Positions 8,901-60,856 of a stretch of 64,000 nt of DNA are shown piece after piece. The notes beneath the pieces are model-generated. The model ran no database searches. It was not told the DNA's origin and worked only from the letters and a program-made list of their open reading frames with translations. The first letter of the stretch is position 1, and every line of letters begins with the position of its first letter. A program made the position numbers and the translations under genes. The stretch covers positions 1-64,000 of the forward strand of contig BRON01000008.1 in the NCBI GenBank assembly GCA_024345305.1. Reading direction: 5' to 3'. Source of the DNA: Mrakia gelida. Its lineage: Eukaryota > Basidiomycota > Tremellomycetes > Cystofilobasidiales > Mrakiaceae.

Positions 8901-9248
8901 CCCAGCGCTCCTCCCCTCCCGCTCGAGTCCTACCGATCCGACGACAACTCTCGACCCTTCAAAGCCTTCCCCCCCGGCAAAGGATCGACCTACTTCCTTA
9001 ACCTGGCCGCTCTGGACCATACAACCATCTCCCTCGCTCCCAAGACCAAGCTCCTCTCCACTCCCAACGAGCTCGTCGCCCTCCTCAACCTCGTCGATGG
9101 TCTCACCGCCAAGCTCAGGCAATGGACGAGGACCGGCTCGTCCCCTACCGTCAAAACCGCCGAGAAAGCCAAAGCCTTCTGGCTCACTATCGCTGGGAGG
9201 ATCTGGGAACGAGGGATGGTGCGGAGCAGGGATGGGAGGATGAGTTGA
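5930..9248 (+). CDS. Coiled-coil protein with disordered Ser/Pro N-terminus
   Basis: I do not recognise the family. The ATG at 5930 opens a Ser/Pro-rich disordered region (MSQERPTTPSSTNSPSPIRS) with basic patches, running to an intron at about 6460. Further exons (about 6621-6745 and 6912-7090) are acidic and Gly/Asn-rich. From about 7200 the exons encode coiled coil: LRKRV/TTLEADIASRKVERA, TRQITAQRCLAYEERDATV, ITKDRAVLLQQQRDGLS, KLELESQVVVLSERILEL and TLQHQHSQLRNEYRAA. A Pro-rich linker (about 8577-8697) leads to a C-terminal globular part with GKGSTYFLNLAALDHTTISL and LVALLNLVDGLTAKL. Two places break the frame. Near 7545-7555 the heptads continue one frame over as EEALEESRRVLEVEKARAEE. Near 9210-9225 the frame used here stops at 9248, while an amphipathic sequence, EELLAIVGVEDMLPGVFAVI, continues in another frame to a stop at 9463. 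A role in cytoskeletal or spindle-pole scaffolding is possible but is only a guess from the architecture. Confidence 0.65.
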
Positions 9249-9989
9249 TCGCAGTTGGGCAGGGATGGGAGGAGCTGTTGGCGATTGTAGGAGTGGAGGA
9301 TATGCTTCCGGGGGTGTTCGCGGTGATTAGGGTGTTGGAGGGAGACTTGTTTAAGGTCCTTGAGCGAGCGGCGGGGAGGGCTCGAGGGAGAACGAGGAGC
9401 TGGGTTTGTGTTTGGGTTTCCGTGTTTTGTTTTACGATTTGGGTTCTGGTTTCGTTCGTTTGATTTGCTTTGATTATGTTCTCTCTGTTTTCGCTTTCGG
9501 TTTCGTTTGATTATGGCTTGAAGGATGATTGATTCGTCTCGGAGTCGGAGGAGAAGAGAGAAACGAAAAGACCGAAGACGCGTCGAGCTCGAGTCACGCT
9601 CACTGGGTTCTGCTTCGCGGTGGAGCTGAGAAAGCGGTCGATTCTGGGAGAGTAGATACCCATGTAGTATAAAGCTTAGATCAACGGGACTGTTTGACGC
9701 GTCGAAAGGAGCGAAGGTGAACAGAAGCGCAGAGCCTGAGCTCGTCGCGTTCTCCTCGAGCATGCTTCCTCTCGTCTTTCTCGCCTTTCGTGCCCTCTCC
9801 TCTCGCCATGTTTACGTCGTGTATATGCGCAGCGAGCCTCGAATGCTCATCTACATCGATGTAATGGAGGTGAAGGCGGCACCTTAGTTTTTCCGACGTT
9901 CACTTGTGGAGCCTCGTTTCGATCTGCGTTTCTGCCTCCGCCGTCGGTCCACGTCGCTCGACAACTGCCAATCGATACGAATCACATCT
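9249..9989. other. Intergenic or 3' flank with GACGCGTC sites
   Basis: Apart from the possible alternative C-terminus of the upstream coiled-coil gene (to 9463), I see no gene here. The stretch holds two GACGCGTC palindromes (about 9578 and 9700) and otherwise mixed sequence. Confidence 0.4.
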
Positions 9990-10307
9990 TCACGCCCTTT
10001 GGATAGGATACCAACTAGACCCTCGCTTCCTGCTACGAGCTGCCTTCCTTGACTTTCGATTGGAGACGTGACGCGTCTCTCCGCTTCCTTTCCTCGTTTC
10101 CCTTTCCCTTTCTACGAGCTTCTTCATATTTGCAGCGTTATCGAGCTCCGCCTGGACTCTCTGGTAAGTAGATTGACGGACCTCTTCAGCGTGGTCACTT
10201 TCCTGTCGCGACTCGAATAGCGCGCGTTCCCCTTCCCCCTTGCTCCGAGCCTCCGAGTCCGTCCTCTTCCCTCGAAGAGCAAGAGCAGGGTCCGAAAAGC
10301 CGAACAT
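9990..10307 (-). CDS. Candidate small charged protein (105 aa)
   Basis: A single open frame runs from ATG 10307 (MFGFSDPALALRGKRTDSEA) to a stop at 9990. The middle is rich in Glu/Arg/Gln with a helical look (RQESDHAEEVRQSTYQRVQA, AANMKKLVERERE), and the tail is Arg/Lys/Ser-rich. The composition is unlike the Ser/Arg shadow frames elsewhere in the window, and the frame lies alone in the gap between two genes, downstream of the bleomycin hydrolase stop on the same strand. I do not recognise the product. It may be a real small gene or part of a spliced one whose last exons are not resolved. Confidence 0.4.
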   Translation of the reverse strand: MFGFSDPALALRGKRTDSEARSKGEGERALFESRQESDHAEEVRQSTYQRVQAELDNAANMKKLVERERETRKGSGETRHVSNRKSRKAARSRKRGSSWYPIQRA

Positions 10308-19628: not shown

Positions 19629-20670
19629 ATGCCTTCAGAACCTGGTCTCAGGTCATCGAAAACGACGTCAAAGGTCAGTTCGAGCCATCAGTCTCTTAGG
19701 CTTCATCTTGTGAACCCATATTTCTGTCTTCGTCTCCCTCTCAGGTCCCTCCTCGTCGTTGGCCATGGGACGTCCTCCTCCTCGTCTTCAAGGAGGCCGA
19801 TCCTTCAACCCTCGCCGTCCTTGGGAGAGTCTCGATGGACTTCTTGGCTTCGACGGCTCCCCTGCTGTATCGAGATGTGGAGTTGAGCTCGCTTGAGAGC
19901 TTGGAGTTGTTGTTTTGCGAGAGGGAGCAGGAGGAAGAGAAGGTGAGTTCGCTCCGCCTCCTCCTGTTCTCCGCTGTCACCTCCTGACTTTTCTTCTTTG
20001 TTCCCTTCTCTTTTCGAACACCCAGAACTCCTCTGCCATCTCTCGCATCAACCCTTACCTCTCCCTCGACCAAATTCGAACCCTCTTCCTCAACTTCACG
20101 GACGTCGAGCTCACTTCTGAACCCAAGATGTCGCCGTCCAGGATTCCCTACTCTCCCCTCCTTCTCGACCGAGTCCAGATCTCATACGGACACCTGCATG
20201 GATACACCTTGATTCAAGTCCTCTTCGATTCCCTCTTCGATCATCTCAACCCTCTCCAGTGCGCGTATCATCTCATCGGACGACCACCTACATTCACCCC
20301 TTGGGTCTGTCTCGGCTCGCCTTCTTCGGCCAGATGGACGAGGATACAGGACGTCGAGTTCAGCGGAGGGATTTTGTCCGAACCTTTCGGGCCAGGATAT
20401 CGTTTGCCAAGATTCCCAGCTCGTTCTCTTCTGCAGCGTCGAACAATTCGTCTTCACGTCGCGTCCCTCCTCTCCTCGAGCGGTCCGACCGTGAACAAGT
20501 TCATGCGTAGACTGGGGTTCGACAAGAGTTATCTGGGAGTCGATACGTTACAAGATGGCTCTTTGATTCTCGTCGTTGGATCGGAGGAGGAGAAGAAGGA
20601 AGTCGAAGCTGGGATCCAGGAGGTCGAGCCGGAGTGGAGATCTCGTTTCGCAGTGGAGATGGAGGTGTAG
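19629..20670 (+). CDS. F-box-like protein, copy 1
   Basis: Start ATG 19629 (MPSEPGLRSSKTTSK), an intron in phase 0, then PPRRWPWDVLLLVFKEADPS and TLAVLGRVSMDFLASTAPLL. This has the form of an F-box (LPWDVLLLIF...DPSTLA...VS..F...A.PLLYRDVEL), which usually binds Skp1 in SCF ubiquitin ligases. A coiled segment (SLESLELLFCEREQEEEK) ends at a second intron. The rest is a leucine-rich C-terminal region (ISRINPYLSLDQIRTLFLNF; RRTIRLHVASLL) of the kind that recognises substrates. The stop is TAG at 20668-20670. A near-identical F-box exon occurs in the gene at 42.5 kb; the C-terminal parts are clearly homologous but more diverged. It is convergent with the MYND gene at 21.6 kb. Confidence 0.8.
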
Positions 20671-42498: not shown

Positions 42499-43514
42499 AT
42501 GCGGCCAGTCAGTCTAAACGTCCGTCTGTACTCTCGCGAGTCTTTCCCGACTGACGGAGCATCTTCCCATCCCTCTCAGCTCGCTCGTGAATTGCCATGG
42601 GACGTCCTCCTCCTCGTCTTCAAGGAGGCCGATCCTTCGACCCTTGCCGTCCTTGGACGAGTGTCGTTGGACTTCTTGGCCTCGACAGCCCCGATTCTCT
42701 ATCGAGATGTGGAGTTGAGCTCGCTTGAGAGCTTGGAGTTGTTGTTTTGCGAGAGGGAGCAGGAGGAAGAGAAGGTGAGTTCGCTCCGCCTCCTCCTGTT
42801 CTCCGCTGTCACCTCCTGACTTATTCTTCTTCGTCCCCTTCTCTTTCGAACACCCAGACCTCCTCTGCCATCTCTCGCATAAACTCTCACCTCGACCTGG
42901 ACCAAATCCGAACCCTCTCCCTTAACTTCCACAGGGTCCGAGTCGACTCCAAGCTCCAGATCTCATCTTCGAGGATCCATCGATCTCCTATCCTTCTCGA
43001 CAACCTCAGAGTCTATTACGGCCAGGATGAACATATCGGATCTATCAGGAGGATCTACGAGTCCATCTTCCATCATCTCAACCCTCTCCAGTGCGCGTGT
43101 CATCTCACTGGACGACCGAAGGGAAGGCGCACCATCGGCTGGGTCCTCCTCGGTTCGTCTTTCGCGGCCGAATGGACGAGGCTACGAGACCTCGAGCTCA
43201 GTGGAGGGATCACCTACAGCCTTAGCGGTAGATATTTCCATTTGGGAGGACTGCCAGCGCCATCTCTTCTCCGGCGTCGAACGATTCGCCTTCACTTCGC
43301 GTCCCTTCTCGGTCACTATCCTCCGTCCTTGAAGGTTCTCTTGGATGAGATTGCGCGGGACTTTGGAGTGTACAACTTCGGCGAAATGCAGGACGGATCA
43401 ATCAAGCTCGTCGCTCAAAACGAGGAGGAGGCGAGGGAAGCGAAGGAGGTGGTTCGAACGAACGAGAAGATCGCGCGATGGAGGAACGTCTTCGCTGTCG
43501 AGGTCGAGCCTTGA
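42499..43514 (+). CDS. F-box-like protein, copy 2
   Basis: This is the paralogue of the gene at 19629. ATG 42499 gives MRP; the following gtcagtct...ctcag segment is probably an intron of 75 bases (it can also be read through in frame). Then comes LARELPWDVLLLVFKEADPS with TLAVLGRVSLDFLASTAPIL, an F-box-like motif. The next segment (SLESLELLFCEREQEEEK and the following intron start) is almost identical at DNA level to copy 1, including intron bases. The C-terminal leucine-rich region (ISRINSHLDLDQIRTLSLNF; RRTIRLHFASLLGHYPPSLK) is homologous but diverged. The stop is TGA at 43512-43514 after VFAVEVEP. F-box proteins usually recruit targets to SCF ubiquitin ligases through their C-terminal part, which here differs between the copies. 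Confidence 0.8.
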
Positions 43515-44398
43515 GGTGAGCTGTCTCATCCCTTTCGTTCCTCCCTCGTACGACTTCAAGCTGATTCGCCGTTCTGTCTGGCTTCTCTCAGGCGAAATCA
43601 CCACGTCGACTCGCCCTCCCTCCCTCTCCCTCCGACAACCGTCCTACGCCTCCCTCCCCTGGATCCTCCTCGCCATCAGCACCCCCTTACACCGTCACCA
43701 ACACAGGAACTCACATCAAGATCTCCTGTGAGTTTCCAAACCCCTCGAGGTCGAGAAACGGCGAAGAGGCGATCCGAACTCGAAACACGAACCTGACGCG
43801 TCTCGTTCCGACTTCGTTTCGTCTTCCCTTTCCAGCAGCCCAACACCGTCGCAGAGAACACCTGCCCCTGACTCGCCCGTCGCTTTTCTCACCACCGAAC
43901 ACTCTACACAGTGAGTCTCGCTCTCTCACAATTTTTTTCCTGTCGTCAGGCGAAACCCGATACTGACCTCGACGCGTCTTTTCTTCCACTCGTCTCTCTC
44001 TCTTAGACGATCCGTTAACGAATCACGACGGTCTACCGGCCTACACTTATATATATTCTTACTCTCTATGCATTCCCTCGATTTTTCTCTCAAGTACAGT
44101 AACGAAGAACGAAGACGCGTCGCTCGACTTGACTCGGTCGAGCTTTTTTGTTCGCGAAAGAAGGGCTCAGCGCTTGACCTCCTTCTGAACAGAGCATGGG
44201 TTGATACCACGAGACGAAGGACGTCGGCCATCTATTGACGCGTCCATCAGGTACTTGGTCGCTGCCGCTGAAGACCTCAAGTCGAGGGGTCGGAGGTGAG
44301 CGAGGCAAGCCAGGTCGAGAGAAGGGGATGAGGAGCGAGATGAAGGGTCGTTGAAGCCTGAGTACGCTTTTTCAGGGAGTGAGCGATGACGTGTCGAG
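43515..44398. other. 3' flank of F-box copy 2 and far upstream region of gene A
   Basis: Just after the stop comes an intron-like segment (gtgagctg at about 43516, gctgattc at about 43560, ctctcag at about 43589), matching the position of one after copy 1. More introns follow to about 43985. Four GACGCGTC sites lie between 43796 and 44240. From about 44265 the sequence resembles the far upstream region of gene D. Confidence 0.4.
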
Positions 44399-44700
44399 GT
44401 GAAGGATCTTGAAAAAGTCTTCTTCATTCGCCTGAGATCATTCTCGAACGCGAACGAGCTCTTGGGAGGGGGAGGGGAGGAAACGTCGAAGCTCACCGTT
44501 TTCAACTCCTCCCTCCCTCACCTTCGAGCTCTTCCTCCGCTCTTCCTCCTCTCACCCACCACCCAGCCTTTCCCTCAACCAAAGCCTTTTTCTCCTCTTC
44601 CTCTCCTTCCAGCCATGAGCTCATCGCCTTCCCCCCTGACTCTCTCGTCCCGAAGGCGGTTTGGTGCCTGATCGCCCAAGGGAGGGAACGCTCTCCTTTT
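44399..44700 (+). promoter_or_regulatory. Shared promoter block of gene A
   Basis: The distal part (44410-44512: TCGCCTGAGATCATTCTCGA, then GAACGAGCTCTT, GTCGAAGCTCACCGTTTTC) and the proximal part (44658-44693: TTTGGTGCCTGATCG and CCCAAGGGAGGGAACGCT) recur upstream of B, C and D. The proximal part ends about 125 bases before the ATG. Confidence 0.7.
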
Positions 44701-44816
44701 GGCACCCTCCTCCTCCTTCTTCGCTTCCCTCCTTTCTCCCCTTCTCTTTCATCAACCACAGCCTTCTTTCTCGTCTCCTTTCTCCTCGACGACTACCCGA
44801 TTCTCCGCTTCTCGCC

Positions 44817-45859
44817 ATGTCTCCTCTCGGTCGCTCGTTCGCCCCCCACCTCAACATCTCCACCTCTCCTCCCCTCGTCGACAAGAACTCCTCCTCCCTC
44901 CCTTCTCTCGCCAACTCAGCCGTCACCGCTCCCTCGTCCATTCAACTCGCGTCTTTCCCTCTCGCCAAGAGAATTGCACCCGCCATCAAGCCTAAGGAGG
45001 AAGAGAAGGAGAACCACAGTCCTTTCTCGAGGACAGACGAGGATACGAAGGTTCAAGTCGGCGAAGGTGAGCTCGCTTTCCCTTCCCTCGCTCGCTCTCG
45101 CCCTCCCCTCCTGCTTCTCAACCTCCTCACCGACAAGAGACGCAGATCTGACCATCGTCGCGCCTTTCTTCTCACCCAGCTCGTCGAAAGGATCTCTCGT
45201 CCACCTCATCGTCGGCAAACTCACCCGCCTGCTCTGCACAATCGACTCCCCCAAGTTCCCCTCGACTCGTTCCTCCTCCTCGCTCCAGCCCGACCTTTCC
45301 CTCCGGCTCCCTCATCCTCTTGTCCAGACCGGCATCGAAACTGGTTTTGGATAAACGTCTCAAGATCGAGGCGTCGAAGGTCAGAAGGAGAGAGAGGGAG
45401 GAGGAGCACGAGTTGAACAAGAAACTGGAGGAAGAGGAGGAGCAGGAGGCGGCGTGGAAACTGGAAGGTGAGTCGTCTTCTTGACCCGCCTCGTCTCAAC
45501 GTATCGTTCTCCCCTCGCACTCCTCCCTTCTTCCACTTGAACTGTAGAGCTGATCATTCCTGGCTTCTTCCTTGGACGCAGAATCCCTTCGAGCTCTCAC
45601 CTACACGCGAACCCCACCCTCGATCGCCGCTGCCGAAGCTGCTGAGGCTGCTCTCGCTGAGACCACGGAAAGGATCAGGGTTCTTTTCTTGAGGATTGAG
45701 ACCGTTCGAGCCTCGCGTGAGTAGCTGTCTCCCATTCAGGGTCTCATCCTTTCTCGTGTTTCACCAGTCTAGCAGCAGCTGACCGACTTCTCCTCTCTTT
45801 TCGCTCCCTCAGAAGAGCGAACCCTTGCTCGACTCGACGCCCTCTTGAACCCCGAATAG
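44817..45859 (+). CDS. Cluster gene A: coiled-coil paralogue without MYND finger
   Basis: Unrecognised protein family that shares its promoter and N-terminus with C and D. ATG 44817 opens MSPLGRSFAPHLNISTSPPL and contains SSSLPSLAN, also present in C, then KPKEEEKENHS, like the KENE patch of B and D. After an intron (gtgagctc) a Ser/Pro region leads to a strong coiled coil: KLVLDKRLKIEASKVRRRER and EEEHELNKKLEEEEEQEAA. The next exon is helical (SIAAAEAAEAALAETTERIR). The last exon gives EERTLARLDALLNPE and TAG 45857-45859. No Cys/His finger exon follows, unlike B, C and D, so the copy has lost it or diverged before it was gained. Phases join without breaks, so the gene looks intact. Confidence 0.65.
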
Positions 45860-46540
45860 TCTACCTCGGTCCTTCGACTCCATGGACGATCCTCCTTCCG
45901 ACGACAACCAAACCTTCACTCTTTCTCTTCGCTGCTTCGCTTCGCTTCTCCCTCTTTCTTTTCGTACCTTCTCGCTCTTCGTTCTCCCTCTTCATACACG
46001 CTTTTTACGCACCCACCTCACGACTTTCACGCGCTACCTCCCTCTCCCTCTCCCTCTCCCTCTGCTACGCTGTTACTTCTCGTTCCTATCGCTTATCGTT
46101 CTGTTTCCCTTCCTCGCTCGCTCTGCACCTCACTCCTCCCTCACTCTCTCATCGCCTGCACTCCCTCCCTCCTTTACTGATATTCGCGTAACCCTATACT
46201 AATCCTTTCTTGCACCCCTGCTTTGCTTCTATCGTACACCTTGCATGCTCGTATCGCCTGCTCAAGGAAAGGAAGAGGGAAACGAACGAGCGGATCTTGC
46301 TCGACGCGTCGAGTCGAGAACGCGAACGGACGCGTCTTTTTACACTTACCCTGCCCCTGCGAGCTGGCATCCTACTCTCATCTCCTTCTATAACGTCTCG
46401 AGACCTCAGCCGACGCTTTGTCGGATGGAGAAACTATCCACGGCATTGGTGGAGGATCAATGAAAGAGAGTCGGAGCGCGGGACAGCTCGAGAGCGACGA
46501 GATCGACAGCGAGATGAAGGTCGTCGAAGTCTAACGACCT
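45860..46540. other. 3' flank of A, intergenic
   Basis: A CT-rich stretch with CTCCCT repeats at about 46040-46065 and two GACGCGTC sites (about 46302 and 46329). Its pattern (ctc-rich, then tttttacgcac, then gcactc) resembles the regions downstream of B, C and D, so the duplicated unit includes 3' flank. No gene seen. Confidence 0.4.
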
Positions 46541-46845
46541 TTTTTCAGGGAGTTCTCGAGGTTAAGCTTTCTAAGATGCCTTCGAATTCCGCCAGAGATC
46601 ATTCTCGACGGCGAAGGAGCTCTCGGACTGGCGAAGGAAGGAAGTCGAAGCTCACCGTTTTCGACTCCTCCCCATGAGTCCCTCCTCCTCGTTCTCTCAC
46701 CCACCACCCAGCCTTTCCCTCAACTAGGTCTTCTTTCTCCTCCTCTTCTCCCTCTCTACATGAGCTCACCGCCTTCCCCCCTCGCTCGCTCGTCTCGAAA
46801 AGGGTTTGGTGCCTGATCGCCCAAGGGAGGGAACGCTATCCTTTC
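46541..46845 (+). promoter_or_regulatory. Shared promoter block of gene B
   Basis: Distal part at about 46590-46672 (GAGATCATTCTCGACGGCGA, GAAGTCGAAGCTCACCGTTT) and proximal part at 46804-46840 (TTTGGTGCCTGATCG, CCCAAGGGAGGGAACGCT). It is the counterpart of the blocks before A, C and D, with the same spacing to the start codon. Confidence 0.7.
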
Positions 46846-46949
46846 ACCCTGACTCCTCCTCCTTCTTCGCTTCCCTCTCCTTCCCTCCCATCAACCACGA
46901 CCTTCTCGCTCTTCTTCTTCTTTGACGACGACTACCCAACCTCCTCAAC

Positions 46950-48286
46950 ATGTCGACTCCCTCCTCTCCCAACCGTCGCCGCTCCCTCGACGAACCACAT
47001 CTCTCCTACACCTCTTGTCAAGAAGGATGGCGTCAAGGTTCAGGAGGGAGAGAAGGAGAACGAGGAACCCTCGTCGAAGGAGGGGAAGGATCAGAACGAA
47101 GGAGTTGGCGAAGGTGAGCTCGATTCCCTTCCCGCTCTCTCCCTCTCTCTCTTCCCTCCTTCTTCTCTATGACCTTCTTATCGACGAAGTAGGGAGCTGA
47201 CCTCACTTGCATCCTCGTCTGGTCCCTCATGTCTTCGTCGTCCATCCCAGAGTGCAGGGTCCTTGAGAAGGAGGCCGTGGAGATCGGGACGGACGGAGTC
47301 CGTGAGCTGGACCTGCTTCGAGGTGAGTCTGTATATTCAACGTCTAAGGGGCGTCTTCCAAATCTTCTCCCCTTTTCTCGAGATTGCAGAGCTGAGAGTA
47401 TGCCTGTTGCTCTTCGGCTCGCTCAGAAATCCAAGAACTTAAACGAGACAGGTCGGTGCACCAAGCAGCGAAGCTGGAGCTTCGACTGAAGTATGAACGA
47501 CGTGAGCATATCGAACGTCTCTGAGGGGGCTTCTTCTCCTTTCGAGACTGCAGAGCTGATGATATCCCTGCTCTTCTTCAGTTCGCTTGCAGAATCTAGA
47601 ACGTCGTCAAAGCGCCAATGAACGCCGATCGCACCGCCTCTCAGTCCTCCTCAAGACCGAGTCGTCCATCGAGTCCCATCTGACCCTTGCGGACCGCTCT
47701 CATCTCAGTCAGTAGAGGTCCAGGTCGTCCAAGCCTCGCACCGCGCTCGCACCTTCACTCACTGACCTTGCCCTTCCCTCCTTCTCTTCGTTCTCGGCTC
47801 CTTCCTCTTAGTCTCAAACAGATTCTCGATTGATCGATGCAGAATCGGAGGAGACGACTGTCAGCCGGCCGATGGAGAGCTGAGGCTTGTTTGTGGGCAG
47901 GTCAGCTTCGTTTTGTCTTCGTCGTTCTTCGTCGGGCTCGCTCCTCTCCGGTTCCAACTTCTCGCCCTCCGATCAGAATCGTTGACCACCTCTTTCATGC
48001 TCTGTTCTCTACCTTTCACATTGCCTGACCGTCGCCTATTGCTCCAAACGTCCGTCCTTTCTCTCCTCTCGCCGTCTCGTCGCGTCGACTCGCGTCCCTT
48101 CCCCACTGACCTTTCCTTCTTTTCCCTCCGTTTCGTTTCCCAGGCCACCAACGCTCGGACTGGAAAGCTCACAAGCACAACTGCTACCCTGAAGACGCAT
48201 ACTACGACTGGCTCTCCGAGAAGCTTGAGACTGTATCAAACGCCCTATTGAATTCCGCTTCGGTCTCCGACGTCGACGTCGACTAG
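46950..48286 (+). pseudogene. Cluster gene B: damaged MYND paralogue
   Basis: The start context and first codons match D (MSTPS against MTTPS), but the conserved Lys/Glu segment EGEKENEEPSSKEGKDQNEG is in a different frame from this ATG, so exon 1 carries an indel. From that frame onward the exons join well: ECRVLEKEAVEIGTDGVREL, EIQELKRDRSVHQAAKLELR, LQNLERRQSANERRSHRLSV with LLKTESSIESHLTLADRSHL, and RFSIDRCRIGGDDCQPADGE ending RLVCGQ. The 28-nt finger micro-exon (48022-48049; CLTVAYCSK) is preceded by AT instead of AG, and the last exon gives HQRSDWKAHKHNCYP and ends SVSDVDVD. The finger ligands themselves are kept. With both lesions a full protein cannot be made from this sequence by canonical splicing. 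An unrecognised upstream start or non-canonical acceptor is the alternative. Confidence 0.6.
48022..48049 (+). other. 28-nt MYND micro-exon of B, acceptor lost
   Basis: Length, phase and coding sense (C-x5-YC) match the other copies and the donor gtccgtcc is intact. The two bases before it (48020-48021) are AT where AG is required, and no AG lies in the preceding 35 bases. Confidence 0.65.
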
Positions 48287-48588
48287 GTCTTTGCTTTCCC
48301 TCTTGCTTTCCCTCTCTCCTTTTCTTACCCTCTTGCACCCCTTTGACGCTCTTCACGCACTTACTCTACGAACCCCTCCCGCTGCTCTCTTGCTCTCACT
48401 CGCTTTTCTTTGCTTGTTTCTCGGTTTCCCTCGCTCGCTTTGCACGTCATACTCCTACTCTTCTTTCCCTCGTTTGCACTTTCTCGCTCGTTCACTCACT
48501 TTGCTTACACACCAGTCTACTCGCACCCTTGACTCTTTCTCTCTCTTCTAGCATGCACCTTCTCTCCTTCTCTCAACTCAGTCCAGAG

Positions 48589-48613
48589 AACGAACGCGCG
48601 AACGAACGAACGC
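48589..48613. repeat. (CGAA)n short tandem repeat
   Basis: Imperfect run of CGAA units, directly followed by a GACGCGTC palindrome. Confidence 0.8.
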
Positions 48614-48773
48614 GACGACGCGTCGAGTACAGGAGCCTCGACCTTTTGGTCTTCATTCGTTTTTGAGTGACTTTGAGCTTCGACCTTAACCGTGCTGGAC
48701 TTGCCACACCACCTCAAGACCTCGAACGGGCACAGTCGCGACTCCGGTTGACCGAGAAAGCGGCTCGACGATC

Positions 48774-48795
48774 AACGAACGAACGAACGAACGTC
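48774..48795. repeat. (CGAA)n short tandem repeat
   Basis: About five CGAA units, again directly followed by a GACGCGTC palindrome. Confidence 0.8.
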
Positions 48796-48985
48796 GACGC
48801 GTCTCTCTCCCTTCCCCTCCCCTTCTCTCCCTCCTTCTCTCTTTCCATTCTGCCCCCGAAACCCCGCATCGTCAGGTGTACGAGCAGGAAGCCCATCAAG
48901 ATCTCTAATGACCTCTTAACGAACTCCACTAAGCAAGACCTACCCGAACCATCCTTCTTTTTTTCCGTTGACGTTCGAACGAAGA

Positions 48986-52016
<3,031 letters not shown>

Positions 52017-52596
52017 CGAGAAGGGGAACGAGGGCTGCAGGCGAAAGGCGAAGGGGGGAGGAAGGGACAGCGAGAGAGAAAAGGTCAGCTTCAGAGCTCT
52101 CGAGTGCTCCTTCCTTCGCTCGGTGAAGCTAACGAGCTCTTAAAGCTCAGCATGATCAACTGATATAGAAGCTCGTACTCACGAAGGGGTGAGAAGGGGG
52201 GAGAAGGGTTTTGGAGGGTCGTGAGTGTTGGGAAGAGAGAGCGAGAGGTGGATTGAGATTCGGAAGAGAAGGTCGTCGAAGGAGCGAATCTCCTTCAGTT
52301 CACTCAAAAGCTCACAACTCCATCATCTCTTAACGGATCACTTTCATTTCTTGTAGGTAGACTTCTTCCAGCTCCACCTTTCGTTCGCCGAGCTCGAAGC
52401 TTGCGAAAAACTATCGCGAGAAGGGCTGGAGGGGTCGGTTTCTGTTCTCTCGAAGCTCGATCTCCTCCTTCCCTTCCTTCGACCTCAACACCTCCCCCAC
52501 TCTCAACTTCCCTCGACCTTCCTCGTGCTGAAGATCCGCCTCCGCTTATCCTCGTATCTCTCCAGATCTGCCCGCCCATCTCGCTATCCTCCCAAA
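52017..52596. promoter_or_regulatory. Divergent promoter region, CCT6 / NAA50
   Basis: A 580-base gap between two housekeeping genes that read apart. Each side is pyrimidine-rich on its coding strand close to the start. No gene is seen between them. Confidence 0.45.
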
Positions 52597-53791
52597 ATGT
52601 CTACAGCCGCTACGAACGCGACGGTCTCCGCTCCTGTGGCCTTGAAGTCCAAGGTTCCCATCCAGCCAACACCCAGAGTCACCCTCTCCTCCCTCACCAT
52701 CAACAACGTGTGAGCACTACCGTCTATACCATCCGCTTCTAAAGACCTCGAAACTGACTCGACTCTCGTTCTCGCGTTTCTTTGCTGTAGCGGAACTCTG
52801 CGAGCTCTCAACTCCGCCGTGAGTTGAGCTCTCGACTTTCGTTTTCTGCCTTCCTTCGATCTTCGAGCTCGAGATCTTGAGCTGATATCGTTTTCGCTTT
52901 CTCTCGCTCGTAGATCTTCCCCGTCTCTTACAGCGACAAGTACTACGCTGAGGTCCTCGAAAGCTCAATGGAGAACTTCAACAAGCTCGGTGAGTCGTCC
53001 TTTCCTCTCCTTCCCTCACTCCCTCGCTCGACCCACCACCGTCGCCCTTTACCTCTTCCACCTCACTTCCACTAACACGCACACTCCCTCTTTCTTTCCC
53101 AAACGCCCTAGTCTACTACGCAGACGTCCCCGTCGGCTCCATAACCTGTCGTTTCGAACCCTCCCTCCTCCCAATCCCCACCACCCCAAACTCCCCCTCT
53201 CTCAAACTCCACATCCTCACTCTCAACGTCCTCCCCGCCTACCGCTCGCAAGGTCTCGGAGCTCATCTCCTCGCTCACGTCGTAGAGAAGGCAGCAGAGT
53301 TCCCTCCTCCTCCTCCTCCCCCCGCGGCCGCGCCCAAGAAGGGAGACGCGAAGAAGACGACGACGGTGGTTGCGAACGGGGGGGTCAAGGAGACGAGGAA
53401 GGTCGAGAGCGTGTTTGTGCATTGTCAGGTGGGGAATGAAGAGGGGAAGAAGTTCTATGAACGGGCTGGCTTTGAGGAGACTGGAGTGTGAGTTTCGCGT
53501 TTCTCCTTTTTCGTCCCATCCCTTTTTGTTCCCCGCCCTCCCATCATCGCCGCCACCACCATCGCCACTACCATCCTCTCTTGTCCCTCCCACGTCACTC
53601 CTCTCACTCCTCTCCCTCGTCGTCTACCTCTCCTTCTCCTCATCCTCGAACGACCTCGAAACGCGCGCTGACCCTCCCTCCCTCCCTCCCTCCCTCCCCC
53701 TCGTTTGCCCCCCTTGCCACCTCGCAGCATCACCAACTACTACGCCAAAATCGAACCGAGGGATGCTCTTCGTCTTGAGAAGAAGCTCTAA
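52597..53791 (+). CDS. NAA50: N-alpha-acetyltransferase 50 (NatE catalytic subunit)
   Basis: A GNAT-fold acetyltransferase acting on N-terminal Met residues, usually bound to the NatA complex on ribosomes, and needed for sister-chromatid cohesion in animals. ATG 52597: MSTAATNATVSAPVALKSK, then VTLSSLTINNV/GTLRALNSA and IFPVSYSDKYYAEVLESSME, which is the diagnostic NAA50 opening (IFPVSY.DK.Y). VYYADVPVGSITCRFEPSLL follows, then LKLHILTLNVLPAYRSQGLG, the acetyl-CoA loop in R/Q-x-x-G-x-G/A form (RSQGLGA). The end reads VFVHCQVGNEEGKKFYERAG and TNYYAKIEPRDALRLEKKL before TAA 53789-53791. An insert of roughly 35 residues with a run of seven prolines sits between AHLLAHVVEKAAEF and the VFVHCQV strand; the family normally has only a short loop there. 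Five exons. Confidence 0.93.
53669..53700. repeat. (TCCC)n tract in last NAA50 intron
   Basis: Run of CTCC/TCCC units between the CTGAC branch site and the CAG acceptor of the intron. Confidence 0.7.
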
Positions 53792-54050
53792 GCTTCTCTC
53801 CTCTCCCCGGACTAAACCTCAAAATCGAATGAACCCTCACTCGTCTTCTTTCCGCGCGAGAGCGAGAGGGAAGCGATGGAATCGAGTGCAAGCGAGAGTA
53901 GAGCGAAAAGCGAGAGAGAAGTGCGTAGCAAGTGTCAAGTAAGAGTCGTAAAGTGTGTGCGTAAAGACCGTCAAAAGGGGAGCAAGAGGATAGAAAGAAG
54001 GTGTGAGAGAGAGAGAGGGAAAGCAAGCAAGACGAAGGTGAGAGCGGGGC

Positions 54051-55506
54051 TTAGTCGTCGACCTCGTGGATCGAGGCGGACGTGTTGGCGAGAGTTTGGA
54101 CCTCCTCGACGAGGGACTTCTGGTTGGGGGTGGCGGCTTGACAGACGAGCTTGTGTTGCTTCCAGTCGGAGCGTTGGTGACCTGGAGAAGGAAAGAGAGG
54201 GAGGGGAGGTCAGTCGCGACTCACTCGACGCGACGAGCAGACGAGAAGAGATGGGGAGATGGGACGGACGCCTGGATCAGTAGGCGACGACTCGACACTG
54301 GAAGGGTAAAGAGAGGATGAAGAGTGGTGGGTCAGCCATTGATCGAAATGCGGGAGAGTGGACTCGAGAGAGAGCGAGGCGAACGAGAACGACGAGAACG
54401 AAACGAAGCTCACCTTCCCACAGACGCTCCTTCCACCGCCCACAGCTGGCTCACAGTCCAAGCCTCCAAGCGCACATCGATGAGTTGACTCTCTTGACGT
54501 AGTTCCCTCCTTCTCGACGCTTCGATCGACCGAGCTCGACGAGGGCTTGAGAGGAACGACGTCGCCGAAGTCTGAAAAAGGCCAAGTTCGGTCAGTGAAG
54601 TTGGAGATGATCGCTTTGAGAGAAATACTCACCATCTGGGTACAGGGATTTAAGCATCGCGGACCTGATCGTCATGTGCTCAGCGATGGTGTTGATGAGA
54701 GATGCAGCTTCGCGAGCCGTCGCGACTGTCGGCGCCGTGGAGTCGAGTTGAGCAACGACGCCTCGGATATCTTGAGGGCCAGAACAAGTGGATAGATGAG
54801 AGGGAAGATATCGTCAGCTTTATACTCATACGAGAGCATGAACGAGGGATGGGAGACCACGCCGGCGGTCTGGAAAGGTCGAAGGACTCACGTTCCTCGA
54901 ACAAGTCCGTCAGATCCTTCGCTTGGATCAGCTTGAAGCTCTCCAGACATTCTTGAAGGTTCTGACTCAGTTCCGCGCAATCCCCTAGATGCTCTCGAGT
55001 GAGGGTAGCCTTCCTCTCCTCTGACATGTCCTCCGTTCCGTTGGTTGCTGGATCGAGGAGGGCGTCGAAGTTCGAGGGAGGGGGAGCAGCAGTGAAAGAT
55101 TGAGAAGCGGCGGGAGAGGAAGGGTTGACCGTGTCATCGACTGCCTCTTGAAAGGCTGAGCGATCGAAGAAGAGGAAGGAAGTGGTCAGATGTTGGAGAG
55201 TGGAGAAGTAAGGGAGGAAAGAGGACGTGAGAAGGAATCGAGCTCACCTTCGAGCATGTCCTTCTGCCAATCTTCCGCATCCTGCCCCGACACAGGGTGC
55301 TCCCCGCTCGCCAGCCGCTCAATATGCCACATGACTCTTGCGATGTTATCGAAGAAAGGGGTACGAGAGACTGGAGAGGGAGAATCATCGGTTGGGTTGG
55401 CGAGGGAAGGGAGAGAGGAGGACTCCTGATTCTGGACGAGGGGAGGAGAGTGGGATCCGTCGAGGTTGGCAGCGAGCGATCCATTGGAAGAAGAGGGAGT
55501 AGTCAT
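54051..55506 (-). pseudogene. Cluster gene C: MYND paralogue with in-frame TGA in the finger
   Basis: ATG 55506 opens MTTPSSSNGSLAANLDGSHS and contains SSSLPSLAN as in A. The exons join in phase: MWHIERLASGEHPVSGQDAE, AFQEAVDDTVNPSSPAASQS, HLGDCAELSQNLQECLESFK with AKDLTDLFEE, VVAQLDSTAPTVATAREAAS with MTIRSAMLKSLYPD, and HRCALGGLDCEPAVGGG ending SVCGK. The 28-nt micro-exon (54299-54272) reads CRVVAY, then TGA (54281-54279) where the other copies have a cysteine codon. The frame beyond would give HQRSDWKQHKLVCQAATPNQ and end SASIHEVDD at a TAA (54053-54051). As written the product stops inside the zinc finger and lacks its second half. It may be a young pseudogene, a functional truncated form, or a sequencing error. 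Everything upstream of the TGA is open, which argues that any inactivation is recent. Confidence 0.62.
54272..54299 (-). other. 28-nt MYND micro-exon of C with TGA
   Basis: Acceptor ttccag and donor gtccgtcc are intact. The seventh codon is TGA instead of a Cys codon. Length and phase match the other copies. Confidence 0.7.
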
Positions 55507-55895
55507 GCTGAGGAGGGATGGGTGGTCTTCAAAGAAGAGAGAGGGAGAGACGAGAGAGAGGGTCGTGGTTGGTGGCGAAGGAAGGAAAGGGAAGCGAAGA
55601 AAGAGGGAGGAGGAAGGTGAAAGGAGAGCTGGACGATCAGGCACCAAACCCTCCTCTTTGGGACGAGCGAGCGAAGGGTGAAGGCGATGAGCTCATTCGA
55701 GAGAGAGGAGAAGGGGACGAGAAGGTTTTATCGGGGACGAGGTGGAGTGATGGCTGGGAGAGAGAGGAGAGAGTCCGAGCTCGAGGAAGGGAGGAGGGGT
55801 CGAAAACGGTGAGCTTCGACGTTCCTTCCCTCCGCGTGGGAGAGCTCGTTCGCCTTCGAGAATGACCTTTGACGCAAGAAGGAGATTTTCGACAC
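55507..55895 (-). promoter_or_regulatory. Shared promoter block of gene C
   Basis: On the minus strand, the distal part (about 55885-55800) has GTCATTCTCGAAGGCGAACG, GAGCTC and GTCGAAGCTCACCGTTTTC, and the proximal part (about 55660-55636) has GGTTTGGTGCCTGATCG. The GGGAGGGAACGCT portion seen in A and B is missing here, so C has a shortened version. Confidence 0.65.
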
Positions 55896-56529
55896 ATCGC
55901 AACCTTTGCTCTTCCTTGCCATCTCCATGAAGAAGCTTCTTCAGACTTCGACGAACCTCCATCTCGCTATTCGTCTCGCTTCGCTCACATCTGACCCCTC
56001 GCTTTCCCTTTCTTTTGGTCCTTGTTGACCGTTCTCGTGGCTCGTCTCTTCATCTTGAGTGATCAACGAGGTTTGAAAAGGTGAGCTGTAAGCGGATGCA
56101 GTGAAGTCAGGAACTCGAAGAAAACTCTCTGATGAGAGGAAGTGGAAGGACAGATGAGACGCGTGATAAGTTCTTGACTCGACGCGTCGACTTCCTCCGT
56201 CTGTTCCTTCTCTGAACAAAGCAAGAGCAGGAGAGAACGTGCATGCTAGTAGAGGGAGAAAGAAGGGGTGCAGGTGGGGTGATGCCAAGTAAAGTAGTAA
56301 GCGAAGGAGAGTGTGCTGGAGAGAGAAGCGAGAAAGGCGTAAAAAGGGAAGCGATGGAAACGAGTGCAGGCGAGAGCAGAAAGCAGGCGAGAGCGAGAGG
56401 CTGGTAGCAATGACGATGTAAGAGTCGTGGCATGAGTGAGAAAGAACGCCAAAATGGGGAAGGAGGGTACGAAAGAAGAGAGAGCGAGAGAGAGAGAAAG
56501 AGGGAAAGCAAGACGAAGAGAGGAGAGGC
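55896..56529. other. 3' flank of D and far upstream of C
   Basis: No gene seen. On the minus strand the segment from about 56515 down to 56230 resembles the 3' flanks of B and C, including CTAGCATGCACG near 56245. One GACGCGTC is at about 56180. Confidence 0.4.
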
Positions 56530-57875
56530 TTATTCGTCGTCGTCGTCGACTGGAGGCAAGGCGACGATCTTTCCAGCCTCCTTGGTGACCCATCGTTGGA
56601 AGGCGTTGGCGGTCTGGCAGAAGAGCTGGTGGGACTGATGATCTGCGAGCTGATGTCCTGTGGAGAGAAAGAGAAGGAGGAAGAGGAAGAGACGGTCAGA
56701 CGAGGGTGGACTCGACCGCGGATCGACGCGACGAGATAACGGACGAAAGGATATGGGACGAACGTCGGGAACAGTAGGGGACAGCCAAGCACTGGCGGAG
56801 GTGGATTGCGACGAAAGAGCAAGATGGTCAGCGATCAACTCGAAGAGCGAGGAGATGGAATCGAAGACGAGCGAGACCGACGACGAAGAACGACGACAAC
56901 GAGATGAAGCTCACCTTGCCACAAACCAACCTCCATTCTCCATCGGCTGGTTGGCAGTCGAGCCCGTTGACGTTGCATCGATCAGGCGAAGGTTTGCCGA
57001 TGTCTAGAAGGAAGAAGATGAAGACGGAGAGCAGGAGGGAAGGGAAAGGTCAGTACAGTACGCGATTGGTGCGCGCGCGAGAGTGGGACGAGACCTCGGC
57101 TTACTGGCACAGGAGCGTTCCGCATGGGTGAGGCGGGCGTCGATGCACGACTCAGTCGCGGCGAGATCTGAGAAGACCTCCAATGAGAGTTGATTGACGC
57201 GTCGTTGAAGTTCTAGACGGGTTCGCGAGCGAGCGGAAGAAGAGCAGGGACATTGTCAGCTCTGCAAACTCGAGGAAGAAGAAGGAGAAGGCTGGAAAGA
57301 CACCCTCCAGAGACGTTCGACATACTCACCTTCCTTAGACGAGACCTCCCAAGTGTCCAGATCCGCGATTCGGATCTTCGCGTCCTCCATCGCCTTGTCG
57401 AGGATCCTGCGCTCACCCTCAAAGAACGCTGCCGACGATTTGTTGTCGTAGATCTCAGCGTCGATGAACGAGACGTCTCTTCGAAGACCTGAGGGAGGCA
57501 GAGAAGAGTAAGAGTACGCTCGAGGTCAGCTATACATCTCTCGTCGCAAAGAAGGTCGGAGAAACAGAAGGATGGAAGAGAGAGAGAGGACGGGAGGGAA
57601 GGAAGCTCACCTTCACCGACGAGCCCTTCGTTTTGATCCTTCCCCTCCTTGGGCAAGAGTCCCTCGTTCTCCTTCCCTCCCTCGTGAGACTTGGCGACGG
57701 GTACAGCCTTCTCGGAGACAGCTTGAGAAGCCACCTGCTTGGACGAGGAAGCGGAAGCAGTGGCTGAGGTGGCGAGGGGAGGAAGGGCGACCTCGTCGCG
57801 GAGGAGCTTGACGGGGGGTAGACTTGATTCGTTGACGTTGAAAGCGAGTCCGCCGACAAGAGAGGGAGTAGTCAT
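56530..57875 (-). CDS. Cluster gene D: MYND zinc-finger protein, intact copy
   Basis: ATG 57875: MTTPSLVGGLAFNVNESSLP, followed by a Lys/Glu patch GGKENEGLLPKEGKDQNEGL. Next come RRDVSFIDAEIYDNKSSAAF with RRILDKAMEDAKIRIADLDT, and ELQRRVNQLSLEVFSDLAAT with ESCIDARLTHAERSCA, a predicted helical region. The finger starts RCNVNGLDCQPADGEWRLVC, the 28-nt micro-exon (56791-56764) gives CLAVPYCSR, and the last exon gives HQLADHQSHQLFCQTANAF, so all MYND cysteines and the terminal His/Cys are present. It ends PPVDDDDE and TAA (56532-56530). All phases join without stop. This is the only finger-bearing copy of the A-D set that looks complete. MYND fingers normally mediate protein binding; the target is unknown. 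Confidence 0.75.
56764..56791 (-). other. 28-nt MYND micro-exon of D (intact)
   Basis: Acceptor gccag, donor gttcgtcc, phase 0 in and phase 1 out. It encodes CLAVPYCSR with both cysteines. Confidence 0.75.
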
Positions 57876-58440
57876 GTTGAAGAGGGATGGGTAGTCGTCG
57901 AAAAAGAAGAAGAGAGAAGGTTGTGGTTGGTGGCGAAGGAAGGAGAGGGAAGCGAAGAAGGAGGGAGGAGGAGGGTGAAAGGAGAGGGTTCCCTCCCTTG
58001 GGCGATCAGGCACCAAACCCTCTTCGGGACGAGCGAGGTAAGAGTGAAGGCGATGAGCTCATCTCTAGAGGGAGGAGAGGGAGACGAGAAGCTTTGACGG
58101 GGCTGAGGTGAAGTCGTGGCTGGGAGAGAGAAGGAAGAGTGCGAGCTCGAAGAAGGGGAGCTCGAGGGAGGGAGGAGTTGGAAACGGTGAGCTTCGACGT
58201 CTGCTTCCCCTCCCCCTTCGAAGAGCTCGTTCGCCTTCAAGCACGATCTCAGGCGAAAGAACTAAGCTTTTCAGAGAGCCGTATCTCGATACCTTTTCCC
58301 TGAAACCCTGGAAAACCTCTCCAGGCTTCAACGACCCTTCATCTCGCTCTTCATCTCCTCCCTCTCGATTCGTCTCGCGTCGCTCACCTCCGACCCTCGA
58401 CTTGCAGTCTTCAACGGCATATTTCGCTCCTCACCAACTC
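57876..58440 (-). promoter_or_regulatory. Shared promoter block of gene D
   Basis: On the minus strand: proximal block about 58022-57985 (TTTGGTGCCTGATCG, CCCAAGGGAGGGAACC), distal block about 58265-58185 (TCGCCTGAGATC, GAACGAGCTCTTCGAA, GTCGAAGCTCACCGTTTCC), and a far block to about 58415 (GTCGGAGGTGAGCGA, GATGAAGGGTCGTTGAAGCC) that is also found about 500-540 bases upstream of A. A and D are therefore the most similar pair in this region. Confidence 0.68.
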
Positions 58441-59418
58441 GGACGACGATGTCTTGATGCCTCTTCATCGAGATCCTTCTCGACATCCACGTTTCCTCGA
58501 CTTCAATCCCTTCAGAAGCAGCGACAAGTTAATCATTTGGGCCGTCGACGCGTCGTCGCCTGCTCGAAAAGAATGCTCGTCAGCCGATTCAGCTCGTGTA
58601 GATGTTCGGAAGCGGTAGATCAGCCACTCCGTCAGCTCGCAATGAGGTTGCGTAACGAAGAAAATCTGCACAGAACTTGTCATAAAGCAGGAGAACGCGC
58701 TTCTCTTTGTCGCGTCGCGCAACCGAACTCGTTCTTCTTCCCGTCGAAATTTTCTTGCAGCCAAGATCAGGTCAGAGTATGAGAAGGGTCATCATAGGTG
58801 TACATGCAAGAAAAGCGAAATAATCACCTCATTATTATTCCTGCGAGGCGTCGAGGCGAGAAGACCGTCCTTCGTCGTCGTTCGTCCGTTCGTGGACGTG
58901 AAGCTTGAGGCTGAGGTAGGCCGAGTGGGGGAGACGGCGAGATGTGGGTCTGAGCGAGACAGATAGAGGAGGTGTCAGCTTTAAGCGGCAAGGTTCGATA
59001 GAGGGAGAGGTGAACTCACGATGTCGAAGTCCAAAAAACGAGGCGAGGCGAGCGAAAGACGGACAAGCGGAGATATCCAGAAAGCGAGTTCGGACGAAGA
59101 CGTGTATCTAGGAGGACGAGGAGAGCAGAATCAACATCGTCAGTTCGAGGAAGACATGGCGCGAAGAGGGCGGAAGAAAGAGAGCCCACAGGTGTCGAAA
59201 GGCTCGCCCAGGGTTGGTCAGACAATGCGTTGAAGAGGGTAGGATAGTGGGTAGGCGAGAGTATGAGAGGGTAAGCAAGATAGTTGAGAAGGTTGCTCGT
59301 ATGGCGGCAAATCAAAGGAGAGCAAAAAAGGAGGTGAAAGTTGATCGAGAAGCAAAAGGGAACGACGCGACGCGGGTCGAAACAACGAACGACAACGGCA
59401 ACGACGAGAGCGACCAAA
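58441..59418. other. Intergenic, D promoter to MYND copy 2 stop
   Basis: No gene is supported. Minus-strand intron signals (gtgagttc at about 59018 with gctgac and cag following at about 58980-58965) suggest spliced 3' untranslated sequence of the MYND gene. One GACGCGTC lies at about 58547. Confidence 0.4.
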
Positions 59419-60856
59419 CTACCAGATCGGAGTCCAGCACGTCTTCTTGTGCGTTTTCCAATGCAGCTTTTGATGCTCTGATGAGGACGAAGAGGGAGGA
59501 ACACGACCGAGGGGTCAGCTAGAGTAGGACGCGACTCGAGGCGACGTTTAGTCACGAAAGAGCGAGCGACAGACCTCGAGAGCAGTATCGAACAGCTCGG
59601 CACTGCGTGTGTAAGTTGGGCGAAGAGCGCGGTTAGCTCTCGAGACCGAACGAATGGAAGAGGGAAGCAGAGGAAGAGGACGAGCTCACCCGTCCACAAG
59701 CCATCGTTTCCTCCCCTTCGCTCAGCTCTTTGCACCCTCCAGATTCCATCCCCGCACACACCTCCCAGAATTTCATCTTCTCGCAACACTTCGCGAGTCG
59801 AGCATGCGTCTCCACGTCGCGGTTTTCGTCCAGAAACAGTCTGGGGCCTCGAGCTCTGAGGAAAACCATTTCGACCGCCGGTGCGAGCCGAGGGAGAGAG
59901 GAAACGACATCTTCGACGATCGAGAGGTTGAGTTTGAGTAGCTGAGGAGGTGAAGAATTGATGAGGCGGATGAGAGGGGGAGAGCGTGGGAGAGAGAAGA
60001 GGAGGAAGAGTTGGAGGGCGAGGTGTTCGCTGAGGAGCGTCGCTTTGTCCATGAGGTCTTCCGACGGTTCCACGCAGGTAGCCTGGAATCAACGGGAGTG
60101 CGGGATTCAGTCAGTGTGAGGTGTACTGTAGCGATGGCTGGGCTCCGGCATTAGTAGACGGAGGAGAAGACGGAGCGAGGCGGACGAACCTGAAGCAGCC
60201 CCAACCTGGGAAGAAAGTTCTCGACGAGCTTGTTGACAGTATCCATTCTCTCGGAAGCGAACGTCCATCCATCTTCGGTCTCCCTGACGTATCGCGAGAG
60301 ATAAGCAGCGCTCGCCGGCAGTAAGCTGACCTTTTGAAGGAGGACGGTGGTGTAGAGGGTTTCGGCGGATTCGCTATCTTCCCGAGCACCCAGACGAGCT
60401 TGGAGTGCGAGAGAGGGAAGGTATTGGTGTGCGTACTGAGCCTGTAGGGAGGAAGGAGGACTTCAGAGGAGGGGAACGGGTGTTTGTAGCGTTGAGCAAC
60501 GTAGAGAGCGAACGTAAGAAGGGAGAGAACTTGGACAAAGGACGAACGAGAACGAAACCCGCCTCCGAATCACTGGTTTTCAAGAGGCCCAGAACCCCAC
60601 ACACCTGCAGGAGAAGAAGAAAAGAAAGAGAGCTTTAGTGGCAATGAACGTCTGGCGGAGACTTGACTGAGAGGAAGAGGGAAGGGCCCACTTCTATCGC
60701 CACACGACGCAAGATCTCCTTCCTCTCGCTGACCAGAGATGCTCTCAAGTCTGTTCGTTCTAAATCCCAGGGTTCAGCATCAGGGATAGGCTTGAAGTGG
60801 GATTCGTTGATGCATTGGAATGCGGTTGCGATGGATTCGACCGAAAGGGACGACAT
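59419..60856 (-). CDS. MYND zinc-finger protein, long form, copy 2
   Basis: Paralogue of the gene at 21.6 kb. ATG 60856: MSSLSVESIATAFQCINESH, ending its first exon at RRVAIEV. Middle exons encode an unrecognised helical body (ALQLFLLFSLPRSPPLIRLI; SIVEDVVSSLPRLAPAVEMV). The finger begins CCEKMKFWEVCAGMESGGCK with LSEGEETMACGR, continues in the 28-nt micro-exon (59602-59575; CRAVRYCSR) and ends HQKLHWKTHKKTCWTPIW, TAG at 59421-59419. The C-terminus matches copy 1 (HKKTC..P.W) and all zinc ligands are present. It is divergent from the gene at 61119 with a 262-base gap. The function is unknown beyond likely protein binding through MYND. Confidence 0.8.
59575..59602 (-). other. 28-nt MYND micro-exon (long form, copy 2)
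   Basis: Acceptor acgcag, donor gtctgtcg; 28 bases with the same phases as in the other copies. Confidence 0.75.

What the first reader, a model, noticed from the sequence alone, without database searches (positions are those of the whole stretch)
42499..60856. Inverted cluster of four MYND/coiled-coil paralogues around CCT6 and NAA50
Seen directly: genes A(+), B(+), C(-) and D(-) all point inwards, with two unrelated housekeeping genes in the middle. They share promoter blocks, N-terminal motifs (MTTPS, SSSLPSLAN, KENE/KEGKDQNEG), similar 3' flanks and, in B-D, the same zinc-finger exon structure. Protein bodies are strongly diverged while flanks are better kept. Inference: a fast-evolving family spread by local inverted duplication. 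It is the best candidate here for something undescribed.
Basis: partly seen in the sequence, partly recalled or inferred. Interest (0 to 1): 0.75.

Follow-up and report, generated by a model that had tools for sequence, protein, structure and literature searches.

The report
Fast-changing zinc-finger gene family
In a cold-loving yeast, a small family of neighbouring genes keeps its upstream control region and zinc finger similar while the middle of the protein changes faster than nearby non-coding DNA, a pattern usually seen in proteins that must keep recognising changing partners.

Summary
A-D are paralogues, and two more copies lie on the same contig (E at C8:115109, F at C8:144307): six in all. 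The genome fits Mrakia gelida GCA_024345305.1. The 430 bases before the start codon are the best-kept part; exon 1, introns and zinc-finger exons are intermediate; exons 2 and 3 lie near the shuffled floor. In exon 3 of B/D/E, amino-acid-changing differences (0.40) exceed silent ones (0.22) and introns (0.12-0.31): a small-sample sign of diversifying selection. Different segments have different nearest copies, so the genes are mosaics, not simple inverted duplicates. Several copies are damaged: B (start out of frame, splice acceptor lost), C (stop in the finger), F (a zinc ligand lost), A (no finger). An upstream ORF is present in 6 of 6 copies but shows no coding signature. The F-box-like gene upstream of A belongs to a family with at least 150 matches genome-wide; its F-box is conserved, its body looser. 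Best reading: birth-and-death evolution of adaptor proteins with diversifying recognition parts. The target is unknown.

The parts
44387..44816 (+). Leader/promoter block of A (with the short upstream ORF at 44615-44671)
   Evidence: Conserved in six copies; upstream ORF
44817..45859 (+). Gene A, exons 44817-45066, 45180-45467, 45582-45716, 45813-45859; 239 aa, no MYND finger
   Evidence: Spliced model with consensus splice sites, open frame; Pfam scan without MYND
46520..46949 (+). Leader block of B (upstream ORF 46760-46816)
46950..48286 (+). Gene B, seven exons, recently damaged: ATG out of frame by one base with the conserved frame; micro-exon 48022-48049 preceded by AT instead of AG; internal duplication of an intron stretch
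   Evidence: internal repeat
54051..55506 (-). Gene C, exons 55506-55248, 55155-54892, 54770-54633, 54571-54414, 54297-54270, 54181-54051; TGA inside the zinc finger at 54279-54277
55507..55936 (-). Leader block of C (upstream ORF 55696-55637, one extra codon)
56530..57875 (-). Gene D, exons 57875-57611, 57488-57330, 57212-57105, 57003-56915, 56791-56764, 56657-56530; 258 aa with a MYND finger (His at the sixth ligand position)
   Evidence: zf-MYND E=2.3e-5, 24.8 bits over a cut-off of 22.7
57876..58305 (-). Leader block of D (upstream ORF 58062-58006)
42499..43514 (+). F-box-like gene upstream of A; duplicated together with A (copy upstream of E) and again at 19727-20664
49344..52016 (-). CCT6 (chaperonin zeta), ten exons modelled, last exon(s) not modelled; unrelated housekeeping gene

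Best explanation
A lineage-specific family of six related genes on one chromosome arm of a Mrakia yeast (very probably M. gelida), evolving by birth and death. Shown: copies arose by duplication of blocks, partly with neighbouring genes; they exchanged segments afterwards; a shared leader of about 430 bp is the best-kept part; four of six zinc fingers are lost or damaged; exons 2 and 3 have lost nearly all similarity while the introns around them keep some; in the alignable exon-3 trio amino-acid-changing change outruns silent change. Inferred: the proteins are cytoplasmic or nuclear adaptors in which a C-terminal MYND finger docks a fixed partner, the central helical part is the recognition surface and is driven to change, and the common leader keeps the copies under the same expression programme. 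The neighbouring F-box-like family, with a constrained F-box and a looser body, is read as a second adaptor family of the same kind. What is recognised (foreign protein, non-self, selfish element) is not known.
For: Six copies and shared leader. Excess of identity over shuffled floor, means over pairs: leader 0.16 and 0.21, exon 1 0.12, introns 0.10-0.13, exon 2 0.04, exon 3 0.04, MYND exon and last exon 0.12, 3' flank 0.07 (15 pairs, or 10 where a part is missing). Exon 3 in B/D/E: pN 0.40, pS 0.22 pooled; flanking introns differ at 0.12-0.31. Exon 1 pooled pN 0.38, pS 0.37; MYND to C-terminus pN 0.29, pS 0.52, i.e. purifying. Mosaic: D is nearest F upstream (100% of bootstraps), C in the proximal leader (90%), E in exon 1 + intron 1 (99%). 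F-box-like neighbours: pN/pS 0.10-0.32 in the F-box exon, 0.60-0.76 in the body.
Against: pN > pS rests on one exon of three related genes: bootstrap P(pN<=pS) is 0.012 (D-E), 0.048 (B-D) and 0.121 (B-E), and the pairs are not independent. B, used in two of the pairs, is itself damaged, so relaxed constraint can add to its pN. The F-box body pN/pS stays below 1 in all three pairs, so it shows looser constraint, not diversifying selection. Only two copies (D, E) have a complete finger, so decay could explain much. A coiled coil or helical recognition part was not tested. No expression data; no partner known.
Confidence: 0.5

Rival explanations
1. Relaxed decay: a duplicated MYND gene whose copies are all losing function. 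Exons drift freely and the leader is kept only because of gene conversion or residual transcription.
For: Lesions in B, C and F and loss of the finger in A; exon 1 pN about equal to pS.
Against: A, D, E and F keep full open frames over 4-7 exons; the MYND-to-C-terminus part is under purifying selection, pooled pN 0.29 against pS 0.52; under pure drift exons should match introns, yet exons 2-3 fall below them.
Confidence: 0.25
2. Exon replacement: exons 2 and 3 differ because they were swapped for unrelated sequence or arose by shifted splice sites, not because of rapid substitution.
For: Exon 2 length varies from 72 to 288 nt and F carries an extra exon; segments recombine; B has an internal repeat around an intron.
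Against: In B/D/E exon 3 is of similar length (126, 108, 126 nt), has homologous introns on both sides and is alignable, and still shows pN > pS.
Confidence: 0.15
3. Regulated-translation family: the conserved 18-19 codon upstream ORF makes a peptide that controls translation of the main ORF in all copies.
For: Upstream ORF with the same ATG and TGA in 6 of 6 copies; its end GGGTTTGGTGCCTGATCG is matched with 0-1 mismatch only in these six leaders in the genome, three other places having 3 mismatches.
Against: No codon-position bias (variable columns 7, 5, 6 of 17 at positions 1, 2, 3); synonymous share 33 of 104 codon differences, within the permuted range 0.11-0.43; the sequence conservation runs past the stop codon; no covarying RNA pairs, 0 of 29.
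Confidence: 0.1

Closest known systems
MYND zinc-finger proteins (Pfam PF01753)
   Same: D, E, F and the +1 frame of B score above the curated cut-off; C-terminal part resembles the MYND of DEAF1 weakly (E 0.021).
   Different: His replaces the sixth ligand Cys in all copies that have it; the rest of the protein matched nothing; A has no finger, C is cut in it.
F-box and MATH-BTB adaptor families of C. elegans (passage in PMC4334554, citing work I did not read)
   Same: Many-copy families with fast birth and death, constrained docking domain and a changing recognition part; here also an F-box-like family next door.
   Different: MYND is not a cullin-docking domain; the sign of positive selection here is limited to one exon in three genes; no link to ubiquitin ligases or to defence was shown.
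Venom multigene families with accelerated exon evolution (PMC4963849: passages and a reference title seen; the phospholipase A2 case is recalled)
   Same: Exons diverge more than introns between paralogues, with a conserved 5' part.
   Different: No secretion signal noticed here by eye; not a toxin; divergence is much larger and the sample much smaller.

Membership tests
MYND finger protein (PF01753) | Match to the MYND profile above curated cut-off | tested here: met
   D 24.8 bits, E 37.4, F 28.7, B in the +1 frame with the micro-exon joined 39.6 bits, cut-off 22.7; A and C (cut at its TGA) no match
MYND finger protein (PF01753) | Eight zinc ligands (C-C-C-C-C-C-H-C, recalled) | tested here: inconclusive
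   D and E keep all eight with His for the sixth Cys; F has Arg for the last Cys; C has a stop at the fifth; A has none
F-box protein (upstream neighbour of A) | Match to F-box or F-box-like above curated cut-off | tested here: not met
   42499 gene 16.5 bits against 24.3; of 10 relatives scanned 9 hit F-box-like, all below cut-off, 1 had no hit; profile of 14 copies found no PDB chain at E<=1. Hence 'F-box-like' only
Diversifying adaptor family (works like) | pN > pS in the recognition part and purifying selection in the docking part | tested here: inconclusive
   Exon 3 of B/D/E pooled 0.40 against 0.22, one of three bootstrap intervals excludes zero; MYND part 0.29 against 0.52
Peptide-type regulatory upstream ORF | Peptide-level conservation | tested here: not met
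Diversifying adaptor family (works like) | Binding to varying partners | not testable with these tools
   Needs interaction assays

The most novel reading that the evidence does not exclude
Mrakia carries an undescribed intracellular recognition system of fungi: MYND adaptors with diversifying central exons under one shared promoter, next to a very large F-box-like family with conserved F-box and variable body, together serving non-self or selfish-element recognition much as the F-box/MATH-BTB families are proposed to do in nematodes.
Probability: 0.12. Interest if true: 0.85.

Novelty: new member of a known kind. Interest (0 to 1): 0.45.

Why it matters
Families whose exons change faster than their introns usually mark a molecular conflict. 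A free-living psychrophilic yeast is not where such a family is expected, and the F-box-like neighbours (at least 150 matches) exceed the F-box counts of 3-43 listed for ten fungi in one table (passage of PMC4469406; column heads not seen and another counting method). If other Mrakia genomes confirm it, the locus gives a small, well-bounded system in which to ask what yeasts recognise inside their own cells.

Tried and rejected
Upstream ORF as a coding peptide: same start and stop in 6 of 6 copies, but no codon-position or synonymous bias. Extended N-terminus through the leader in any of the three frames: the frames are interrupted differently among copies, and the upstream-ORF-to-ATG distance has the same phase in 5 of 6 only. 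Structured leader RNA: 29 predicted pairs, none with compensatory change, covariation term +1.17. Selenocysteine or read-through at C's TGA: considered, not tested, judged unlikely; a nonsense mutation is simpler. Alternative acceptor for B's micro-exon: looked for by eye, the upstream AG leads to a stop. Relatives elsewhere: E against 5.8 billion proteins, 2143 candidates, none at E<=1; alignment of five copies, the 7991 candidates sharing most words scored, none at E<=10. These E-values are strict and a finger alone would not pass, so absence is not shown; CCT6 as control worked. Plasmid collection: no match for A's leader, an expected blank for a yeast. PDB with the F-box-like profile: none at E<=1. 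First segment table by MAFFT used a wrong exon of B in the 'exon 3' row and had shuffled values up to 0.79 in short segments; replaced. First pairwise test had cheap gaps and no floor; not used for claims. In print: searches for Mrakia with F-box (two papers listed, neither on Mrakia genomes by title), MYND expansion, F-box with MYND and Laccaria, F-box with MYND and positive selection, Tremellomycetes with F-box and family expansion (none) gave listings only; in the main text of PMC12749792 the words F-box and MYND do not occur.
Full report
What the window is. The window is contig C8:1-64000 of a genome of 34,857,517 bases in 25 contigs. Its CCT6 is 99% identical to that of Mrakia frigida, the next being Phaffia rhodozyma at 88%. 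A paper on Mrakia genomes gives the M. gelida assembly GCA_024345305.1 as 25 contigs and 34.9 Mb (passages of PMC12749792), so this is very probably that assembly; this is inference from counts, not an identity check. Mrakia belongs to the Cystofilobasidiales, Tremellomycetes.

The copies. A DNA search of the own genome with the leader of A gives six matches, all on C8: A, B, C, D and two new ones, E (ATG at C8:115109) and F (C8:144307). The block GGGTTTGGTGCCTGATCG-NCC occurs with 0-1 mismatch only in front of these six; three other places have 3 mismatches and the reversed control none. A second block, CGAAGCTCACCGTTTTC-NAC, is found at 0-1 mismatch in the six and in one further place (C13), with eleven more at 2 mismatches. 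Searching with the exon-1 protein of E finds E, D, F, A and B, not C, and three weak matches elsewhere (E 0.03 to 0.28).

Gene models. With consensus splice sites, A has four exons and 239 aa; C, D and E six exons, B and F seven. All but A share the plan exon 1, variable middle, an exon with the first half of a MYND finger, a 28-base micro-exon, and a last exon with the second half. D and E have a complete finger with His in place of the sixth Cys. F has Arg for the last Cys. C has TGA for the fifth Cys. B has two lesions: its ATG is out of frame by one base with the otherwise open frame of all seven exons, and the micro-exon's acceptor reads AT. Pfam's zf-MYND scores D 24.8 bits, E 37.4, F 28.7 and B 39.6 (in the +1 frame, micro-exon joined) against a cut-off of 22.7; A and C have no MYND match. 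So B is probably a recent pseudogene and C makes a protein cut inside the finger; four of the six fingers are absent or damaged.

Where the similarity lies. Pairwise alignment by segment with shuffled floors (15 pairs, 10 where a part is missing in some copies) gives a mean excess over the floor of 0.16 (leader -430 to -215), 0.21 (leader -215 to 0), 0.12 (exon 1), 0.11 (intron 1), 0.04 (exon 2), 0.10 (intron 2), 0.04 (exon 3), 0.11 (intron 3), 0.12 (MYND exon), 0.13 (intron 4), 0.11 (intron 5), 0.12 (last exon) and 0.07 (300 bases of 3' flank). Thus the leader is the best-kept part, and exons 2 and 3 are less similar than the introns on either side of them.

Selection. Counting by Nei-Gojobori proportions in my own script: exon 1, six copies, pooled pN 0.38 and pS 0.37; MYND to the C-terminus, five copies, pN 0.29 and pS 0.52. 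For exon 3 I could align three copies only (B, D, E); A and C lie at the floor there and F has another structure, so these three were left out. In B/D/E pooled pN is 0.40 and pS 0.22; flanking introns differ at 0.12 to 0.31 of sites. Bootstrap P(pN<=pS) is 0.012 for D-E, 0.048 for B-D and 0.121 for B-E; a Fisher test on rounded D-E counts gives 0.016. The pairs are not independent and the exon has 35-41 codons, so this is a hint of diversifying selection, not proof; B's own decay may add to it. Silent divergence is higher in the MYND part (0.52) than in exon 1 (0.37), which fits segments of different age.

Mosaic structure. Bootstrapping columns per segment, the nearest relative of D is F upstream and in the distal leader (100%), C in the proximal leader (90%) and E in exon 1 plus intron 1 (99%). 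C is nearest D in the proximal leader (94%) and F in the MYND part (97%). B is nearest A in the distal leader (99%), D in the proximal leader (95%), E in the MYND part (93%) and F in the 3' flank (88%). Some segments are undecided (for example F in the proximal leader). Larger blocks duplicated with neighbours: 42591-45105 with 112840-115415 (A with E, including the F-box-like gene) and 57523-59190 with 143016-144668 (D with F), both at about 71-72%. Hence block duplication followed by exchange between copies.

The leader. All six leaders hold a short upstream ORF of 18 or 19 codons with the same start and stop. Variable columns are spread 7, 5 and 6 over codon positions 1, 2 and 3; 33 of 104 codon differences are synonymous, inside the 5-95% range of column permutations (0.11-0.43). 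The strongest block runs across its stop codon, and no RNA pair shows compensatory change (0 of 29). I therefore read the block as a DNA- or RNA-level signal of the promoter or 5' UTR. Whether it is transcribed is unknown.

The neighbour. The gene at 42499-43514 begins with an F-box-like exon, below Pfam's cut-off (16.5 of 24.3 bits). Searching the own genome with it gives 150 scored matches (E 7e-55 to 2e-9) out of 470 candidates. Of twelve fetched, ten were scanned: nine hit F-box-like below cut-off, one nothing; a profile of 14 found no PDB chain at E<=1. Among three copies on C8, pN/pS is 0.10, 0.17 and 0.32 in the F-box exon and 0.76, 0.60 and 0.70 in the body, all bootstrap intervals of the body ending below 1. 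So the body is under looser constraint, not under shown diversifying selection; one copy has a stop in the body that was skipped in the count. MYND itself is common in this genome: 33 matches at E<=0.01, 32 above cut-off, with 150 of 207 candidates scored.

Relatives elsewhere. No protein scored for E at E<=1 among 2143 candidates or for an alignment of five copies at E<=10 among the 7991 candidates scored. Because the database is large, a finger alone cannot pass, and unannotated genes would be missed; the family may still exist in other Mrakia. M. frigida proteins are in the database, which makes absence of a close relative in its annotated set likely.

How it probably works (inferred). Fixed C-terminal finger, changing centre, common promoter, frequent loss and exchange: the profile of adaptor families kept changing by their targets. 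The nearest functional parallel I have seen in print is the statement that C. [quoted passage not shown] That the present proteins recognise anything is not shown. The main rival is plain decay of a redundant family.

Verdict. Real, more extensive than reported, and of moderate interest: a new family of a known evolutionary kind. It is not categorically new on this evidence.

Noticed in passing
42499-43514; also 19727-20664, C8:112835, and genome-wide: F-box-like family with at least 150 scored matches (470 candidates) over most contigs of this yeast genome; not mentioned as F-box in the main text of one Mrakia genome paper.
   Followed up: partly
44615, 46760, 55696, 58062 and C8:114919, C8:144115: Short upstream ORF with identical start and stop in all six leaders, consensus near MSSSPSPLARSSRRGFGA.
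   Followed up: yes
whole of C8:1-164000: Palindrome GACGCGTC (extended CGACGCGTCG) occurs 85 times against 4.9 expected from dinucleotides; it recurs in the flanks of the six copies. Role unknown; it contains ACGCGT, recalled as the MluI cell-cycle box.
   Followed up: partly
about 59016-60853, - strand: Gene upstream of D with a MYND-like end (CRAVRYCSRG ... HQKLHWKTHKKTC) read by eye; not scanned against Pfam.
   Followed up: no
2898-10240 with C8:81992-89469: Direct duplication of about 7.3 kb, 82% identical in the first 5.3 kb and 93% in the last 2.1 kb; ORFs listed, content not identified.
   Followed up: partly
47378-47428 and 47542-47594: Internal repeat in B (53 bases, 77%): an intron stretch with its exon border is doubled, giving B an extra exon.
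   Followed up: partly
C8:90211-90766 with C8:100215-100773: Inverted repeat of 0.56 kb at 84%.
   Followed up: no
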